Source: a virus. Taken from it: a stretch of DNA of 40,300 bases. Below, in pieces: positions 6,252 through 40,300 of this stretch. Every line of letters begins with the position of its first letter. The first letter of the stretch is position 1. Made by a program: the position numbers and the translations under genes. The DNA is taken from IMG/VR virus record IMGVR_UViG_3300031972_002359, positions 1 to 40,300 of that record; one strand, 5' to 3'. Under the pieces are notes generated by a model that saw nothing but the letters and a program-made list of their open reading frames with translations, ran no database searches and was not told where the DNA came from.

Positions 6252-7357
6252 CACGCGGCCCCCTGCCCCTGGAGCGACTGCAGGTATCCGGCGAGCTGCT
6301 CGGCGGTCGCATTGAACGGTGCGACGTCGTAGTCGGACTTGAGGCCGCCCTCGATGTCCCACATCGACATGCCCTGCTCGCCACCGACAGCGACGATCTG
6401 CTGCCAGAGTTCCTGAGCAGACGGACCGTCGTGTTCGTCGACGATCTCGCCGTCAACGGCTCCGTCTTCGTCCGGCTCCTGCGGTGCTGCAGCCGACGCG
6501 GCGGCGATCTCACTCGGCTGCTCGAAGGACTCCGCACGCCGGGTCAGGTGCGCCTTGAGCGCGTTGTCGAGGTGGCCGCTCGCTGACGCCTGGCGCCACA
6601 CATCACGCACCGCTTCGGCGTCGCCCGCCATCTCGGCGAGCGCGTAGTAGTCCGGGGTAGGTGCAGCTGCGATGGCAGGTGCGCTGCCGGTGGAAGGCAG
6701 TTCGGTCAGGCCGGCCTTGTCCGCGACGATCTCCCGCAGCTTCGCGGCACCGATCTTGAGGTCGAGGACCGGCACGACGAACCGGGACGTCTTGCCGTCC
6801 TTGACCGCACGCCGCTCGACCAGGTGCAGTTCGGCCGGCACGAGGTCGCCGACGAACTGCGCCAGCTCGGCGACGGCGGGGATCTCGGCGGCGGCGTTCC
6901 AGCCGTGGGACTCGAGCCGCCAGGCGCCGATGGCTTCGAGCTCGGGAAGCATGACGGACAGGCGGGTGGTGGGCTTGGCCTCGATGTGGGCGCGGTCGTT
7001 CTGGTCGCACGGCTCGTTGGTGAGGACGTTGACCTCGCCGTCGCAGCGGTGGATGCATCCGCCTCCGGACCAGGTCTCCATCCACTGCGACAGGCCGTTC
7101 TTGACGACGATGACGGGGATGGTGGTAGCGGTGGTGATGACCTCCCAGGAGGCGATGCCGTTGTTGTCCCAGGGCTTGGGGTCGCCTCCGTAGAGCGCGG
7201 CGAGGTCTCGGATGTAGGTCTCGGACACGCTCGTGAAGCGGAACTTGTCGAGCTTCGCGGGGCGGGTCTTGCCGGACTGGGTGGCCTGCTTCTGGCCGAG
7301 GCGGATGCGTCCGAGTTCGGCCTGGCGGCGCTGGAGGACGATGGGCTGGATGGGCAT
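6251..7357 (-). CDS. phiC31 Gp3-like (recombination directionality factor family) protein
   Basis: A 368-residue protein. The first 210 residues match the Gp3-like pattern: an N-terminal QRRQAELGRIRLG, then PAKLDKFRFTSVSETYI, YGGDPKPW, SQWMETWSGGGCIHRCDG, a Cys pair, TTRLSVMLPELEAIGAWRLESHGWNAA. In phiC31, Gp3 is the recombination directionality factor of a serine integrase. This phage has a tyrosine integrase, so that role is unlikely here. Its neighbour is a PD-(D/E)XK nuclease, and a part in DNA recombination or repair seems more natural. The C-terminal 130 residues are acidic, low in complexity and variable. Confidence 0.78.
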   Translation of the reverse strand: MPIQPIVLQRRQAELGRIRLGQKQATQSGKTRPAKLDKFRFTSVSETYIRDLAALYGGDPKPWDNNGIASWEVITTATTIPVIVVKNGLSQWMETWSGGGCIHRCDGEVNVLTNEPCDQNDRAHIEAKPTTRLSVMLPELEAIGAWRLESHGWNAAAEIPAVAELAQFVGDLVPAELHLVERRAVKDGKTSRFVVPVLDLKIGAAKLREIVADKAGLTELPSTGSAPAIAAAPTPDYYALAEMAGDAEAVRDVWRQASASGHLDNALKAHLTRRAESFEQPSEIAAASAAAPQEPDEDGAVDGEIVDEHDGPSAQELWQQIVAVGGEQGMSMWDIEGGLKSDYDVAPFNATAEQLAGYLQSLQGQGAA

Positions 7358-7360
7358 GGG

Positions 7361-8248
7361 TCAGGAGGCCTTCCGGGTGGTCGACGGCGCGTGGGGCGTG
7401 GCCGCGGTGGGCTTCGCGCCGTACTGGGAGTGGAGGTAGGTCGCGTTGGGCAGGGCGCCCTTGAACGCGGTGAACGCGTCGTCGAGTGACCCGCGCATGG
7501 GCATGGGGATGAGGGCGTAGGAGTCGGCGCGCAGGGCCAGGACGAACGCTTGGTGGATGCGGCCTGGCACCTCGACTTCGGTCCCGTCGTCGAGCAGTAG
7601 CGTTTCGCCGTTGGCGAGCGCCGCGAGCTGCATGCCCTGCTCGGGGTAGGCCGTCAACGCGGGCTTGGTCGCGCTGCTCTTGTAGTCGATGAGGCACAGC
7701 CGCTTGCGGGGCCAGCCGTCGAGCCGCAGGTTGAGCCACAGGTCACCAGTGCCGGCGTAGCCGACCTTGCGGTTGACGACGGTGGCCTCCGTGGCGACGA
7801 CATCCTTGGTGATGTCGACGCCGTAGTCGTCAAAGAACAGGAACAGCTGGTCGACGAACGGCTCGACCTGCGCGTCGGGGATGTAGTCGATGCCCAGGAC
7901 GCGGTTCTCGGCGGTTTTGTGGACGAGGGTGCCGAGGTCGGCTGCCTCGTCGCGAGCGTCGCGGTAGCCGCGCTTCAGCTGCTTGATGAGGCAGGGGCGG
8001 CAGGTGCGGCACTCGTCGGCGACGCGCTTGGGCTTGCACGGCGGGGTCATGGCGGCGGCGATGATGCGGGGCATCATCTGGACTGCCATCTCGACGGTGA
8101 TCTTCACTGCCCACGGCATGAGCTGGTGCTGCTTGGCGACGGACATGTCGAGGACGTTGGTGATGGACGGCCAGGTTTCGGCTGTCTGCGGGTGGACGTA
8201 CCAGCGGCCCTTGCCGGGGACGTCCTGAGCGTGGGTGGGGTTTGTCAT
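7361..8248 (-). CDS. PD-(D/E)XK nuclease (RecB/Cas4-like) with Cys cluster
   Basis: A 295-residue protein starting at ATG 8248, preceded by an AGGAGG-like site. Nuclease residues follow the RecB-type order: GTLVH (H110), TEATVV (E154), GTGDLW (D169) and IDYKSS (D188, K190). Four cysteines at 71, 80, 83 and 86 stand ahead of the nuclease core and could hold a metal or iron-sulfur cluster. They are spaced unlike the split cluster of classical Cas4 or AddB. Likely roles are 5'-end resection for phage recombination or DNA processing. It precedes the Gp3-like gene in the same operon. Confidence 0.82.
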   Translation of the reverse strand: MTNPTHAQDVPGKGRWYVHPQTAETWPSITNVLDMSVAKQHQLMPWAVKITVEMAVQMMPRIIAAAMTPPCKPKRVADECRTCRPCLIKQLKRGYRDARDEAADLGTLVHKTAENRVLGIDYIPDAQVEPFVDQLFLFFDDYGVDITKDVVATEATVVNRKVGYAGTGDLWLNLRLDGWPRKRLCLIDYKSSATKPALTAYPEQGMQLAALANGETLLLDDGTEVEVPGRIHQAFVLALRADSYALIPMPMRGSLDDAFTAFKGALPNATYLHSQYGAKPTAATPHAPSTTRKAS

Positions 8249-11168: not shown

Positions 11169-11432
11169 ATGAACGCACCCGCCACCATCAGTGACACCGA
11201 CCGGGCCATGCTCGACCTCGAGCGTCAGTGGTGGCAGTATGCCGGCGCTAAAGAGGCCCGCATCCGCGAGACGTTCGACATGTCTGCCACGCGCTACTAC
11301 CAGCAGCTCAACAAGCTCATCGACCGTGACGACATTCTCGCGTTCGACCCGTTGCTCGTGCGGCGGCTGCGCCGCCTGCGCTCCCAGCGGCAGCGCAGCC
11401 GGTCGGCGCGGCGGCTCGGCATCGTCGACTAG
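11169..11432 (+). CDS. DUF3263 family protein
   Basis: An 87-residue protein starting at ATG 11169. The central stretch LDLERQWWQYAGAKEARIRETFDMSATRYY marks DUF3263, an actinobacterial sigma-70-region-4-like HTH family. The C-terminus is strongly basic. No Shine-Dalgarno is present, but TACCGT at 11156-11161 lies seven bases before the ATG, which suggests its own leaderless promoter. Its stop overlaps the integrase stop on the opposite strand (CTAG). Family function is unknown, but the fold suggests DNA binding. Confidence 0.82.
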   Translation: MNAPATISDTDRAMLDLERQWWQYAGAKEARIRETFDMSATRYYQQLNKLIDRDDILAFDPLLVRRLRRLRSQRQRSRSARRLGIVD

Positions 11433-12601
11433 CTGACCACCGACAGGCTGGGGCGCGTCCGCCGGTTCCAGATCGTGCTCATCGCCTCGACCGCCTTGTC
11501 CTGCGCGCCCGGCAGGAGGTGGGAGTAGAGATCCATCGTCGTCGTGATCGACTCGTGCCCTAGGCGCTCCTGGACCACCTTCATGTCGACGCCAGCGCCG
11601 ATCAACCACGACGCGTGCGTGTGTCGCAGGTCGTGGATCCGGGGTCGCGGATCGAGCAGCCCTGCGCGAGTGCACGCTGGCACCCACACGTCCTCCCAGA
11701 TGACCTTGTGGTTCAGTTGGCCGCCGCGGGCCGCGCGCACGAGCAGGTCGTCGCCGTGACGGTTGTGGGCCATCTCCTCAAAGATCGCGCAGAGGTCGTC
11801 GTCCAGGCCGATGGTCCGCCGGGACTTGCGGGTCTTGACGGGTCCGATGACGCGTCCCTTGCCCTTGCCGGCGTACTTCGCTGCGCGTGTGATGCGCAGG
11901 GTCTTGCGGTTGGGGTCGAATGCTCTGACCTGGACGGCCTCGATCTCGCCCCATCGGATCCCGGTGCCGACCAGGACTTGGAGGATCGGGCGGTGGTGGA
12001 GTGTGGCTGCGTCGTGCAGGGTCCAGAACTCGTCCTCGGTGAGGAATCGCTTCTCGGTGTCGTCGTGCTCGGTGCGTCGGGGGAGACGGATCTGCGCGCA
12101 GGGTGAGGCGTCGATGAGTCGGTCTTGGACTGCGGTGGCCATCATCGCGGAGAGCAGGCCGTGCTGGTTGGCGATGGTCTTGTCCGAGTAGCCGTTGCCT
12201 TCTCGTCCGCCCGTGCGGGTGAGGCGTGCGAGAGCGGTGGCGACGGTCTCCCGGTCGATCTGGTCGAGCCGCAGGCTGCCGAGGATGGGCGAGAAGGAGT
12301 GGGCGTAGCTGGATCGGTAGCCCGCCTTGGTGCCGTCGGAGGCTCCGGTGAGCGATTCGATGTACCGGTCGGCCCACGCGTCGAGGGTGGGGAGACGGTT
12401 GGGCTCTGCGGCAGTGGTTTGTTGTTCGCCCTCGAGGAGTTTGAGGGCGCGGTCGGCGCCGAGGGTGTCGACCCACGTGCAGAAGGTTTGGGCGCCGTCG
12501 GGGTCGTAGAAGGTGCGCGAGAGCATGCGGCCGTTGACGCGAAATCGGACGCGCCAGGTGGTCTCCCCGGTGCTTGAGGTGCGCTGTTGGGGGGTCGGCA
12601 T
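11429..12601 (-). CDS. int: Tyrosine integrase
   Basis: A 390-residue site-specific recombinase. The N-terminal arm-binding region resembles AP2-like domains (WRVRFRVNGRMLSRTF), then comes a SAM-like core-binding domain (about 70-170) and the catalytic domain. Catalytic residues are R216 (GTGIRWGE), K257, H323/R326 (HDLRHTHASW), H349 (LGHESITTT) and the nucleophile Y359 (DLYSH). I use ATG 12601 because TATCGT (complement of 9-14 in 12609-12614) lies seven bases upstream, as expected for a leaderless start. GTG 12610 is the alternative. It should recombine the attP just upstream with a host tRNA site. Confidence 0.93.
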   Translation of the reverse strand: MPTPQQRTSSTGETTWRVRFRVNGRMLSRTFYDPDGAQTFCTWVDTLGADRALKLLEGEQQTTAAEPNRLPTLDAWADRYIESLTGASDGTKAGYRSSYAHSFSPILGSLRLDQIDRETVATALARLTRTGGREGNGYSDKTIANQHGLLSAMMATAVQDRLIDASPCAQIRLPRRTEHDDTEKRFLTEDEFWTLHDAATLHHRPILQVLVGTGIRWGEIEAVQVRAFDPNRKTLRITRAAKYAGKGKGRVIGPVKTRKSRRTIGLDDDLCAIFEEMAHNRHGDDLLVRAARGGQLNHKVIWEDVWVPACTRAGLLDPRPRIHDLRHTHASWLIGAGVDMKVVQERLGHESITTTMDLYSHLLPGAQDKAVEAMSTIWNRRTRPSLSVVS

Positions 12602-12644
12602 GACGTCCACGATAGGGGTGGGGTCGGACCTTTGTGCGATTTTT

Positions 12645-12827
12645 GTGTGACCGTGGGTGTGACCACGGGTTTGCGGCCTGTCGGCGTTTGGTCGTTCTGC
12701 GCTGCGCTGGCAGCGTTCCTGCTTGGTACCCCCTACGGGATTCGAACCCGATTCCTAGCCCTTGACAGGACGGGCCAAAGGGGACGGATTGCTGCAATCA
12801 CGGCGTTTCGATGTTGCGTGATGTTGC
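12645..12827. other. Candidate attP: tRNA 3'-end-like core with flanking direct repeats
   Basis: The 256-base gap upstream of the integrase contains, on the minus strand, sequence resembling the 3' end of a tRNA gene. It has a T-arm hairpin CGGG-TTCGAAT-CCCG (12736-12750) and then AGGGGGTACCA ending at 12724. No D-arm or proper anticodon stem precedes it, so it is not a complete tRNA gene. One side carries the direct repeat GTGTGACC (12645-12652 and 12657-12664), the other GATGTTGC (12810-12817 and 12820-12827). Both look like integrase arm-type sites. The core presumably lies within 12724-12770. The host tRNA identity is not resolved. Confidence 0.6.
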
Positions 12828-13568: not shown

Positions 13569-13691
13569 ATGGATGCGGCGCAGGCGCTGCCGTCGGAAGT
13601 ACGGCGTTGGCGCATGCCCGCACGCCGAGAGGCACTGATTGCTGCCGAACGAGACCTAGAAGCGCTGCTCGCTTGTAGCCTTCTGCGGTGA
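13569..13691 (+). CDS. Candidate 40-residue leader peptide coupled to HTTM gene
   Basis: An ATG at 13569 opens 40 codons that end at a TGA sharing GTGA with the HTTM start. The product is Arg/Ala/Leu-rich with an amphipathic helix (REALIAAERDLEALLACSLL). An in-frame TAG lies six bases upstream of the ATG, so no longer form is possible. TATAGG sits just before it, but no ribosome binding site is visible. About 60% of third positions are G or C, lower than in surrounding genes. It may be a coupling leader for the downstream start, or chance. Confidence 0.35.
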   Translation: MDAAQALPSEVRRWRMPARREALIAAERDLEALLACSLLR

Positions 13692-15316
13692 CGCGCGCTC
13701 TATCGACGATCAGCCGAGGCTATGGCCAGACGGCCGAGTCGCTGTCGATCTACCGGATCCTGTTCGCGCTGTGGGGTCTGGTGATCCTCGGTCCGACACG
13801 CATGGGTGTCGGACAGGCGTCGGCTGAGCTAGGCGGCCTGCCCGACGGCCTCTACCACCCGCCACTCGGGCCCGCGATGATCCTGTCGGGGTGGCCCCCC
13901 GCCGAGGTGATCCTCGGCCTCGAGATCCTGCTCGCTGCGCTGCTCGTGGCTCTGCTGATCGGCTGGCGTGTCCGCCTGGTGTCGATCCTGCTGGCCCTCG
14001 TCGGGCTCGTGCTGAGCTGCCTGCTGTTCAGCGAGGGCAAGGTCGACCACACGATCCTGTGGGTCGTCGTCGTGCCTCTGGTGATGGCGTGGTCGTCGTG
14101 GGGGGATCGGTGGTCGGTCGACGCACATCCCGATTGCGACGGCGTCAGCGTTGTGCCGGTGGAGGTCGTCGCGATGAGCCTCGGGGTGATGTTCGCTGCG
14201 GCTGGCATCATCAAGGCGCTAACTGGTTGGTTGGACCCGGGCACGTCGTCGACGCTGGGCTGGGCCTTCGCGCAGGACGTTCAAGCCGGCGTCCCGATCA
14301 CCGTTCCCGCTGGTTTCGACATGATCCCGACCGCAGTGTGGGCGGTAGCGGACTACGTCACCGTGCTGTTCGAGCTCGGCTTCTTCGTGGCGGCGCTGCG
14401 CCGCAGTTGGCTCGTGCCCTACCTGGGCGTCGCCGTGATCTTCCACTTCGCCGCGGGCATGTCCGGCTTCCCGGCCTTCTTGGACATCGGCATCGTGTAC
14501 CTGCTGTTCGTCCGTTACGACGGGCTCGCAGCCCGGTGGTCGTCCAGTCTGCTGAAGGTCGAACGGTTCATGCGCGATCACCGCATCTTCGTGATGACGG
14601 CAGCTGCGACCGTCACGGTCGTGTACGTCGCGTCGTCGATCATGCTCGACGGTCCGATGACCGTCGCACGCATGCTGGCGCTGCTGGGTCTGCCCCTGGT
14701 GTACGCCTGGCCAGCTGCGCTGATGGTCGCGCTGGTCCTGTGGTGGCGGTCGCGCCGGCGGCGGGAGACTCGACCTGGCGAGAGGATGCCGGCACGATTC
14801 GCGCTGGCAGGCCTGGTGCTGCTGGTCGTCCAGGCGGTCACGACTGTCTTCGTGAGCGAGCCGTACCCGTCGCTCGCGGGCCCGCTGTTCATGGGCAACT
14901 TCGACAACGGCCGCACGATCAACATCGTGCGGCAGGAGTTCGCCGTCGACGGCAAGCCGATCGAGCGCACCGACCTGTTCGACATGCCTGCGGGAGCCGC
15001 CACGCAGATAGGCAGCGCCCGGTTCCCGGCGCCGTACCTCGCCGCCGACGGCGAGATCATCGACGACCCGTCGCTGCTGCAGGTCCTCGCCGGCCAGTAC
15101 CACCAGTTCAGCGCCCGCCACCTCGGGAAAGCTGCTGTGACGCTCTCAGCGGACGAGCGACGGTGGTTCCGACGTAACGCGGAGACGGCAGGTGCGGACT
15201 GCTCGGTTGGCTGCACCCTCGAGGTCTCTTGGCGCCGCGTCACAATCGACCGTGCGACCGGGACCGTGGTCCGTGATCGCGTCGTGCACTCGCAGTCATT
15301 CGATCTACGCCCCTGA
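13688..15316 (+). CDS. HTTM-type membrane protein (accessory cargo gene)
   Basis: A 542-residue integral membrane protein read from GTG 13688. About eight hydrophobic helices fall at roughly residues 20-38, 72-92, 95-115, 122-136, 160-180, 218-238, 242-275 and 300-355, then one near 370-390. A soluble domain of about 150 residues follows. The N-terminal YRILFALWGLVILGP and the following helices match the HTTM domain known from vitamin K-dependent carboxylase relatives. It is the only large plus-strand gene in the phage and converges on the tail fibre gene with an 11-base gap. The placement is that of a cargo gene expressed in the lysogen. Function is unknown. Confidence 0.75.
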   Translation: MTRALSTISRGYGQTAESLSIYRILFALWGLVILGPTRMGVGQASAELGGLPDGLYHPPLGPAMILSGWPPAEVILGLEILLAALLVALLIGWRVRLVSILLALVGLVLSCLLFSEGKVDHTILWVVVVPLVMAWSSWGDRWSVDAHPDCDGVSVVPVEVVAMSLGVMFAAAGIIKALTGWLDPGTSSTLGWAFAQDVQAGVPITVPAGFDMIPTAVWAVADYVTVLFELGFFVAALRRSWLVPYLGVAVIFHFAAGMSGFPAFLDIGIVYLLFVRYDGLAARWSSSLLKVERFMRDHRIFVMTAAATVTVVYVASSIMLDGPMTVARMLALLGLPLVYAWPAALMVALVLWWRSRRRRETRPGERMPARFALAGLVLLVVQAVTTVFVSEPYPSLAGPLFMGNFDNGRTINIVRQEFAVDGKPIERTDLFDMPAGAATQIGSARFPAPYLAADGEIIDDPSLLQVLAGQYHQFSARHLGKAAVTLSADERRWFRRNAETAGADCSVGCTLEVSWRRVTIDRATGTVVRDRVVHSQSFDLRP

Positions 15317-15327
15317 TTCAAGCCCGG

Positions 15328-17181
15328 TCAGACGACCAGCCAGAGCACACCGTCACAGATCAGCCGAAGCGTGGACCCGGGCGTCACGGTGACGTTGTCG
15401 ATTTGCGCTGTCGTGTAGAGCTTGTCCGTCCCGGCGCACTGGACGGTCAGATCGCCGGACCCGCGGTTCTTGATGAGGAACTCGACGCCTTCGTGTCCGG
15501 CGACGGCGGGGAGAGTCCAAGTAGCGGTGGAGCCGGACGCGACGGCCAGCGCCATCTCGCGGGTCAGGGTGTACGTCGCTCCAGCCTGGACCGTCACGCG
15601 CTTCGTGACCGTCGGGGACAGGAACAGGACGTCCCAGGAGGAGCCGGCGGGAACCAGCACGGCGGTCTGTCCGGGCTGAATGGTGAGCGTCGACGGCGTG
15701 AGCGCACCGTAGAAGAAGGTGCCGCCGGAAAGGACGAGCTTGCGAGCGGTGTCCCGGACCTTGATCACGTAGAGCTGCCCGTCGGGGCGGCCCTGCGCTG
15801 GTGCGGCGAGGGTCCACGCGCCGTCGTTGCTGGTGGCGGCGTAGACCCAGGTGCCCGACTGCGTGACGTGCGCGTCGGCGTCGATCACCTGGAACGCGGG
15901 GAACGCGGCGCGGGTCGAGGCGGGCGGCTTGTTGCCCAGCGTGTGGCGGATGGCCTCGGCGATGACAGGCTTGACAACGGCTTTAAGGAGCGCGTTGCCA
16001 GCGGCGTTGGGGTGGATGCCGTCCGACTGCGACTCGCTCGTCATTTGGGTCTGTCCGCCGGTGACGGTGCCGGAGACGGCGGCCGCGGTGTCGGCGATCA
16101 GGATGCCCTTGCGGGCCAACTGCTCCGTGTTGTAGTCGCGTCGGATTGAGTCGCTGGCGCCCCAGTTGTTGACGGCGGTGTTCACGGGAAGCATCGTCCA
16201 GAGCACGACGGGGACGCCTGCGCGGCGGGCTGCGGCTTCGAGGCGGGCCCGCTTGGAGCGCCATGTTGCGAGGTGCGCGGCGGTGATCGTCGAGTTGCCG
16301 GGGTCGTTGGGTGAGCCGACGGGCATGACGAGGATGTCGGGTCGGACGACGTCGGACTCGAGCGCGTCGATGGCCCGCTCGGCGAAGGTGTTCATGGCCT
16401 GCCCGGACCAGCCGATGTTGGCGTACTCGACGGCCAGGTCGGTGGCGGTCAGTTCCTCGACGGCAGGAAGGATGAAGCCTTCGCCCAGGTAGGTGGAGCG
16501 TCCGTCGGTGATCGAGTCTCCGACGCCCATGACGGTGACGACCTTGCCGCGGGCGAGGTACTGGATGCCGACGATGGGCGACTGGGAGACGTTCGTCGTG
16601 GAGGTGAAGTTGGAGGGAGTGTTGACGGCCTCGACCTGCTGGCGGCGGGCGATCCACTTCCGACCGTCCGAGCGCGTGGCCCAGTTGGTGAAGTCGTCCG
16701 TGCCGTTGCCGTAGACGGGGATCCCGCTGCCCGCTGCGAAAACGGCGCGGATGGTGACGAGTGGCTTGGCGCCAGGGGTGTCGGTGCGGGGCACGGAGGC
16801 GACGGGGATCCAGTCGGTGGTCGTGTACGCAACGCGCTCGGCGGCGGCGGGGGCTCCTGCAAGGTAAATGCGGGTCTGGCCGCCCTTCGTGCCAGAGGTC
16901 CAGGATCCAGCGGAGTTGTTCGCATCGGCGACGGTGGCCGGTGCGGATGCTGCGACGAGGCGGGCCGCGCGAGAGAACGCCGGGTCGGTGTTCGCGAAGA
17001 TCGGGCGGACGGCGTCGAAGTCCGTCTGCAGCTCCGCCGTCACCTGCTCGGTTCCGAGCCCCGCAAGCGTGAGCGTGCCCATGCGGCCACCGAAGATGCG
17101 CGTGGCGATGTTGCCACGCTCGTGGGCGGCGTACTTCTTGCGCGCGTCGGTCTGTGCTGCGCTGAGCGTCACTGCATCCAT
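15328..17181 (-). CDS. Tail fibre/tip protein with SGNH hydrolase domain
   Basis: A 617-residue protein starting at ATG 17181. The central domain, about 210-410, is an SGNH/GDSL hydrolase: block I VGDSITDG (S223), an oxyanion block at GSPND (289-293) and block V SDGIHPN (D387, H390). Such domains cleave ester bonds, often acetyl groups on cell-wall polymers. The N-terminal 200 residues probably form a beta sandwich attached to the tail. The C-terminal 200 residues are beta-rich and may bind the host surface. Being the last gene of the tail module suggests a receptor-degrading or receptor-binding tip protein. Confidence 0.85.
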   Translation of the reverse strand: MDAVTLSAAQTDARKKYAAHERGNIATRIFGGRMGTLTLAGLGTEQVTAELQTDFDAVRPIFANTDPAFSRAARLVAASAPATVADANNSAGSWTSGTKGGQTRIYLAGAPAAAERVAYTTTDWIPVASVPRTDTPGAKPLVTIRAVFAAGSGIPVYGNGTDDFTNWATRSDGRKWIARRQQVEAVNTPSNFTSTTNVSQSPIVGIQYLARGKVVTVMGVGDSITDGRSTYLGEGFILPAVEELTATDLAVEYANIGWSGQAMNTFAERAIDALESDVVRPDILVMPVGSPNDPGNSTITAAHLATWRSKRARLEAAARRAGVPVVLWTMLPVNTAVNNWGASDSIRRDYNTEQLARKGILIADTAAAVSGTVTGGQTQMTSESQSDGIHPNAAGNALLKAVVKPVIAEAIRHTLGNKPPASTRAAFPAFQVIDADAHVTQSGTWVYAATSNDGAWTLAAPAQGRPDGQLYVIKVRDTARKLVLSGGTFFYGALTPSTLTIQPGQTAVLVPAGSSWDVLFLSPTVTKRVTVQAGATYTLTREMALAVASGSTATWTLPAVAGHEGVEFLIKNRGSGDLTVQCAGTDKLYTTAQIDNVTVTPGSTLRLICDGVLWLVV

Positions 17182-40296: not shown

Positions 40297-40300
40297 GGTG

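What the first reader, a model, noticed from the sequence alone, without database searches (positions are those of the whole stretch)
13569..15316. HTTM-type membrane protein carried as a plus-strand cargo gene in a phage
Seen: a 542-codon gene on the opposite strand to all structural genes, sitting between the last tail gene and the attP side, preceded by a 40-codon ORF coupled by GTGA. Known: HTTM proteins are membrane relatives of vitamin K-dependent carboxylases and are mostly chromosomal in actinobacteria. Inference: it is expressed from the prophage and changes the lysogen's membrane, for example as superinfection exclusion, or alters host growth. I know of no phage HTTM gene with a described role.
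Basis: partly seen in the sequence, partly recalled or inferred. Interest (0 to 1): 0.65.

Follow-up and report, generated by a model that had tools for sequence, protein, structure and literature searches.

The report
Phage-borne vitamin-K-carboxylase-like membrane protein
A virus of actinobacteria carries, beside its integration site, a gene for a membrane protein built like the human vitamin K-dependent carboxylase with the two essential active-site residues conserved; its bacterial relatives mostly sit among genes that build sugar coats, so it probably alters the host's surface.

Summary
The gene is real and correctly placed: 542 codons, 13688-15316 (+), convergent with the last tail gene and about 0.9 kb from an attP that I located (12724-12749, a tRNA-Glu 3' end). 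No Pfam, PHROG or NCBIfam model matches the protein, but its nearest chromosomal relatives are HTTM proteins (PF05090, E to 6e-14). A profile of the group finds only gamma-glutamyl carboxylase (GGCX) in the PDB and places H121 and K176 on its essential His160 and Lys218. A second, diverged phage contig in an Aeromicrobium MAG carries a 51% identical full-length homologue in the same place, which refutes the artefact reading. New: the protein is a fusion. Its C-terminal extracytoplasmic domain ('EPYP') is a separate gene just upstream of HTTM in all ten chromosomal split loci examined, and in none of 13 loci of other HTTM proteins. Seven of eleven chromosomal loci lie in surface-polysaccharide clusters. 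Best reading: a lysogenic-conversion gene whose quinol-driven membrane enzyme modifies an exported surface glycan, plausibly the receptor, giving superinfection exclusion. Family, fusion and position are shown; substrate, activity and exclusion are inferred. The 40-codon leader ORF is probably not a gene. No HTTM relative was found in 50,697 phage records.

The parts
13688..15316 (+). fused HTTM-EPYP membrane protein gene, 542 aa, GTG start
   Evidence: (51% identical, same length, in the C379 phage)
13733..14512 (+). HTTM domain, aa about 16-275, with H121 and K176 aligned to GGCX His160 and Lys218
   Evidence: nearest relatives match PF05090
14798..15313 (+). anchor helix (aa 371-389) plus extracytoplasmic EPYP domain (aa 390-542); a separate upstream gene in chromosomal relatives
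13569..13691 (+). 40-codon ORF overlapping the start by GTGA; probably not a gene
   Evidence: GC3 0.60 and no counterpart in the homologous locus
12724..12749 (-). attP core, identical to the 3' end of tRNA-Glu(TTC)
11429..12610 (-). tyrosine integrase
   Evidence: PF00589 E 2.3e-23, phrog_1 E 6.9e-72
15328..17181 (-). last tail gene, with GDSL/SGNH esterase domain (possible glycan esterase)
   Evidence: PF13472 E 4.3e-10

Best explanation
It is a lysogenic-conversion (moron) gene of a temperate actinophage, probably of Aeromicrobium or a near relative. It encodes a multi-helix HTTM membrane protein fused to an extracytoplasmic EPYP domain. Proposed working: the HTTM part uses reduced quinone (menaquinol, the bacterial vitamin K2) and oxygen, with K176 as base and H121 assisting, to make a strong base at the outer face of the membrane; the EPYP domain presents an exported substrate; in the prophage this changes a surface glycan and thereby lowers adsorption of related phages. 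Shown: family, fusion, position, conserved residues, glycan neighbourhoods of chromosomal relatives. Inferred: catalytic activity, quinol use, glycan substrate, exclusion.
For: HTTM: nearest chromosomal relatives (E 2.6e-29 and 2.2e-22) match PF05090 at E 6e-14 and 2.1e-13, another at 6.8e-9; the group's profile finds only GGCX in the PDB (E 0.006-0.008), with H121 on His160 and K176 on Lys218, both essential in GGCX (PMC9146348). Phage cargo: the diverged C379 contig has collinear head genes (38-63% identical) and the homologue between an integrase-like gene and the last tail gene; attP; window ends join through contig L003. Fusion: EPYP gene upstream of HTTM in all ten chromosomal split loci (L112 weak and frameshifted), three of which (L122, L152, L153) were outside the profile that found them, and in none of 13 other HTTM loci; one fused chromosomal copy (L119); the fused trio is a clade, 96/96. 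Glycan link: neighbours include glycosyltransferases (GT2 in 4, GT1/4 in 3 proteins), pyruvyl transferases (3), sugar transferases (2), flippases (2), UDP-glucose dehydrogenases (2), acyltransferase-3 (2); none of these families is among those shown for control windows; L152 and L153 also lie beside glycan genes (my reading). EPYP predicted outside by the positive-inside rule.
Against: No direct test of activity, expression or exclusion. Four of eleven chromosomal loci (L108, L109, L110, L121) show no glycan genes. Controls were only five windows, and only the first 25 families are listed. No glycan-synthesis gene was recognised in the phage itself. Only two phage copies are known, one of them in a MAG contig. 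No promoter or terminator match. The GGCX match is weak (E 0.006) and covers only the first half of the domain.
Confidence: 0.45

Rival explanations
1. It matures an exported peptide, as SdpA plus SdpB (HTTM) do for the B. subtilis SDP toxin, or as HTTM proteins of linaridin clusters are assumed to do; the phage would arm or modify a host-encoded peptide.
For: Same layout: a one-helix protein of 150-200 aa upstream of an HTTM gene, as sdpA-sdpB; HTTM genes occur in linaridin clusters. The fusion suggests an obligate partnership.
Against: No precursor-like gene was recognised beside the phage gene; EPYP does not align to an actinobacterial SdpA (hhalign probability 0.2%) or to any Pfam or NCBIfam model; the SdpB read here lacks the GK-x-DH motif; neighbourhoods point to glycans.
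Confidence: 0.2
2. It is a non-catalytic membrane exclusion protein that blocks DNA entry or a receptor, like SieA or Imm.
For: Large membrane protein next to attP and opposite to the late genes; phages use membrane proteins of this kind for exclusion (PMC11436027).
Against: The residues matching the GGCX active site are conserved between the two phages and in chromosomal relatives that are not in phages, which suits an enzyme better.
Confidence: 0.15
3. It is a passenger gene caught from a chromosome, with no benefit to the phage.
For: Rare: a close copy in 1 of 49 genomes holding related portals and in none of 50,697 phage records.
Against: Open and conserved in two phages at 51% identity, with differences concentrated at third codon positions (0.40/0.28/0.54), in the same place and orientation, which indicates purifying selection.
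Confidence: 0.1
4. Assembly or integration artefact: host DNA joined to the phage contig.
For: In IMG/VR only this contig was found to cover the gene.
Against: Homologue at the same place in another phage contig; window ends join through L003; attP is intact and no complete tRNA is present, so there is no attL or attR junction.
Confidence: 0.02

Closest known systems
[quoted passage not shown]
   Same: HTTM membrane domain; residues matching His160 and Lys218; soluble part on the non-cytoplasmic side.
   Different: No detectable match beyond the first half of the membrane domain; EPYP profile does not find GGCX; substrate unknown; no carboxylation shown.
Split EPYP + HTTM gene pairs of actinobacterial chromosomes (unnamed; described here)
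   Same: Both domains, homologous; same conserved residues; same extracytoplasmic partner.
   Different: Two genes in the order EPYP then HTTM; the phage has one gene in the order HTTM then EPYP.
SdpA/SdpB of the SDP toxin operon
   Same: Small one-helix protein plus HTTM protein.
   Different: EPYP not detectably related to SdpA; no SdpC-like precursor recognised; the SdpB read here lacks the GK-x-DH motif.
Phage O-antigen conversion genes (gtrABC of P22, oac of D3)
   Same: Proposed role: a prophage gene that changes a surface glycan and excludes relatives.
   Different: Different proteins; the role is only inferred here.

Membership tests
HTTM (PF05090) | score above the Pfam cut-off | tested here: not met
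   the window protein itself has no match
HTTM (PF05090) | homology to accepted members | tested here: met
   E 2.6e-29 to a Nocardioidaceae protein that matches PF05090 at 6e-14
HTTM (PF05090) | GGCX-type essential His and Lys | tested here: met
   H121 and K176 align with His160 and Lys218
vitamin K-dependent carboxylase | quinol-dependent glutamate carboxylation | not testable with these tools
   needs enzymology
SdpA/SdpB system | partner protein homologous to SdpA (PF17418) | tested here: not met
   no Pfam match; hhalign probability 0.2%
SdpA/SdpB system | SdpC-like precursor gene nearby | tested here: inconclusive
   none recognised among the neighbouring ORFs; not searched by profile
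temperate-phage lysogenic-conversion gene (moron) | accessory gene near att, opposite to the late operon, absent from most relatives | tested here: met
temperate-phage lysogenic-conversion gene (moron) | expressed in the lysogen and changes its phenotype | not testable with these tools
   needs RNA and plating tests

The most novel reading that the evidence does not exclude
A phage carries a working quinol-driven, vitamin-K-carboxylase-like enzyme that performs carbanion chemistry (for example epimerisation or carboxylation next to a carboxylate, as in a uronic acid) on an exported surface glycan: a new chemistry for bacterial glycans and for lysogenic conversion.
Probability: 0.2. Interest if true: 0.9.

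Novelty: new variant of a known kind. Interest (0 to 1): 0.6.

Why it matters
To my knowledge most bacterial HTTM proteins have no known role. A fusion that names the partner domain, genomic company that suggests the substrate, and GGCX-type residues kept in place make a role for this subfamily directly testable. It would also be the first HTTM gene found in a phage among the collections searched here.

Tried and rejected
Weak matches to aa 31-130 in dozens of Nocardioidaceae genomes looked like chromosomal HTTM proteins; those read through on the coding strand were ABC-2 transporter permeases, so they were discarded. Single-sequence AlphaFold2 of the whole protein (pLDDT 46) and of the EPYP domain (pLDDT 59) was poor, and the fold search of the latter gave nothing. 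Scans of IMG/VR with the protein and with alignments A2 and A5 found no further copy. EPYP as an SdpA homologue: not supported. Weak PHROG matches of relatives were judged chance: short stretches, a different family each time.

Full report
The ORF at 13688-15316 (+) has 542 codons, a GTG start and coding-type composition. It is convergent with the last tail gene and lies between it and the integrase side. The 40-codon ORF with its GTGA overlap exists, but has GC3 0.60 against 0.86 and no counterpart in the homologous locus, so I do not treat it as a gene.

The replicon is a phage. Portal, terminase, tape measure, protease and a tyrosine integrase are recognisable. A second IMG/VR contig (L003) joins window base 1 to base 40300 through about 6.6 kb, so the full genome is about 47 kb and the window ends are not host junctions. 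The attP core at 12724-12749 (-) is identical over 26 nt to the 3' end of tRNA-Glu(TTC). Of 150 Nocardioidaceae genomes, 24 match with up to one mismatch and none matches the reversed control; 10 of the 12 exact matches lie in genomes also listed as the genus of the Aeromicrobium MAG, so an Aeromicrobium-like host is likely. After integration at this site the gene would lie at the prophage end opposite the integrase.

Identity. Pfam, PHROGs and NCBIfam give nothing, and PF05090 gives no match up to E 10. Relatives give the answer. Nocardioidaceae proteins matched at E 2.6e-29 to 2.1e-12 hit HTTM at E 6e-14 to 6.8e-9. [quoted passage not shown] both are essential in GGCX (PMC9146348). Weak matches at aa 31-130 in many genomes were ABC-2 permeases where read, and are ignored.

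A second phage. The contig JALRKU010000250.1 of an Aeromicrobium MAG (G028:C379) carries a 51% identical full-length homologue. Its head genes are collinear with the window's (MuF 61%, adaptor region 63%, portal 47%, two further head genes 38-39%), and the homologue stands between an integrase-like gene (my reading) and the last tail gene in the same orientation. Differences between the two genes are concentrated at third positions. The other 48 genomes with related portals lack a close copy, so the gene is a sporadic accessory gene. No relative of it, of two chromosomal relatives, of a generic HTTM protein or of an SdpB was found in 50,697 phage records.

The fusion. In chromosomal relatives the HTTM gene is directly preceded by a gene of about 150 codons for one helix and an extracytoplasmic domain with the motif EPYP. 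This domain is the C-terminal part of the phage protein. A profile recovers it in ten split loci, three of which (L122, L152, L153) were not used to build the profile that found them; the L112 copy is frameshifted and weak. It appears in none of 13 loci of more distant HTTM proteins. One chromosomal copy is fused like the phage's (L119), and the three fused proteins form a clade (96/96). The charge pattern puts the EPYP domain outside the cell, if the helix seen at aa 242-255 is counted as membrane-spanning.

Neighbourhoods. Seven of eleven chromosomal loci (L111, L112, L119, L120, L122, L152, L153) lie among surface-polysaccharide genes; in L111, L122 and L152 the gene before the pair reads as an O-antigen polymerase or ligase, and L119 and L153 have acyltransferase-3 or SGNH neighbours (the polymerase and SGNH readings are mine from the sequences). 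Pfam counts on 70 neighbours from nine of the loci show glycosyltransferases, pyruvyl transferases, sugar transferases, flippases and UDP-glucose dehydrogenases; the families shown for 57 proteins of five control windows include none of these. The phage's adjacent tail gene has a GDSL/SGNH domain, and the second phage's adjacent tail gene reads like a beta-helix tailspike (my reading), so both may act on surface glycans.

Conclusion. I read the gene as lysogenic conversion by an HTTM-EPYP enzyme acting on an exported glycan, probably to exclude related phages, on the model of phage O-antigen conversion (PMC11436027). Family, fusion, conserved residues and position are shown. Activity, quinol use, substrate and exclusion are inferred. 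The main rival is maturation of an exported peptide, as in SdpA/SdpB (PMC6818787).

Noticed in passing
window ends (1 and 40300) and L003 129-6765: The record is incomplete: L003 joins the two ends through about 6.6 kb not in the window, giving a genome of about 47 kb; three other IMG/VR contigs share 99.9-100% of the head region.
   Followed up: partly
window 6710-7387: About 80% identical DNA in Microcystis phage MinS1, whose portal is 50% identical to the window's; relatives of that portal are otherwise mostly phages and prophages of actinobacteria, so the recorded cyanobacterial host of MinS1 is odd.
   Followed up: no
L108-L112, L119-L122, L152, L153: A conserved, unnamed actinobacterial gene pair (EPYP + HTTM) without a model for EPYP in Pfam or NCBIfam.
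   Followed up: partly
L010 23130-25103: Arthrobacter phage TripleJ also ends its tail operon with a lysophospholipase L1-like esterase followed by opposite-strand genes before the integrase, so this position may be a cargo site.
   Followed up: no
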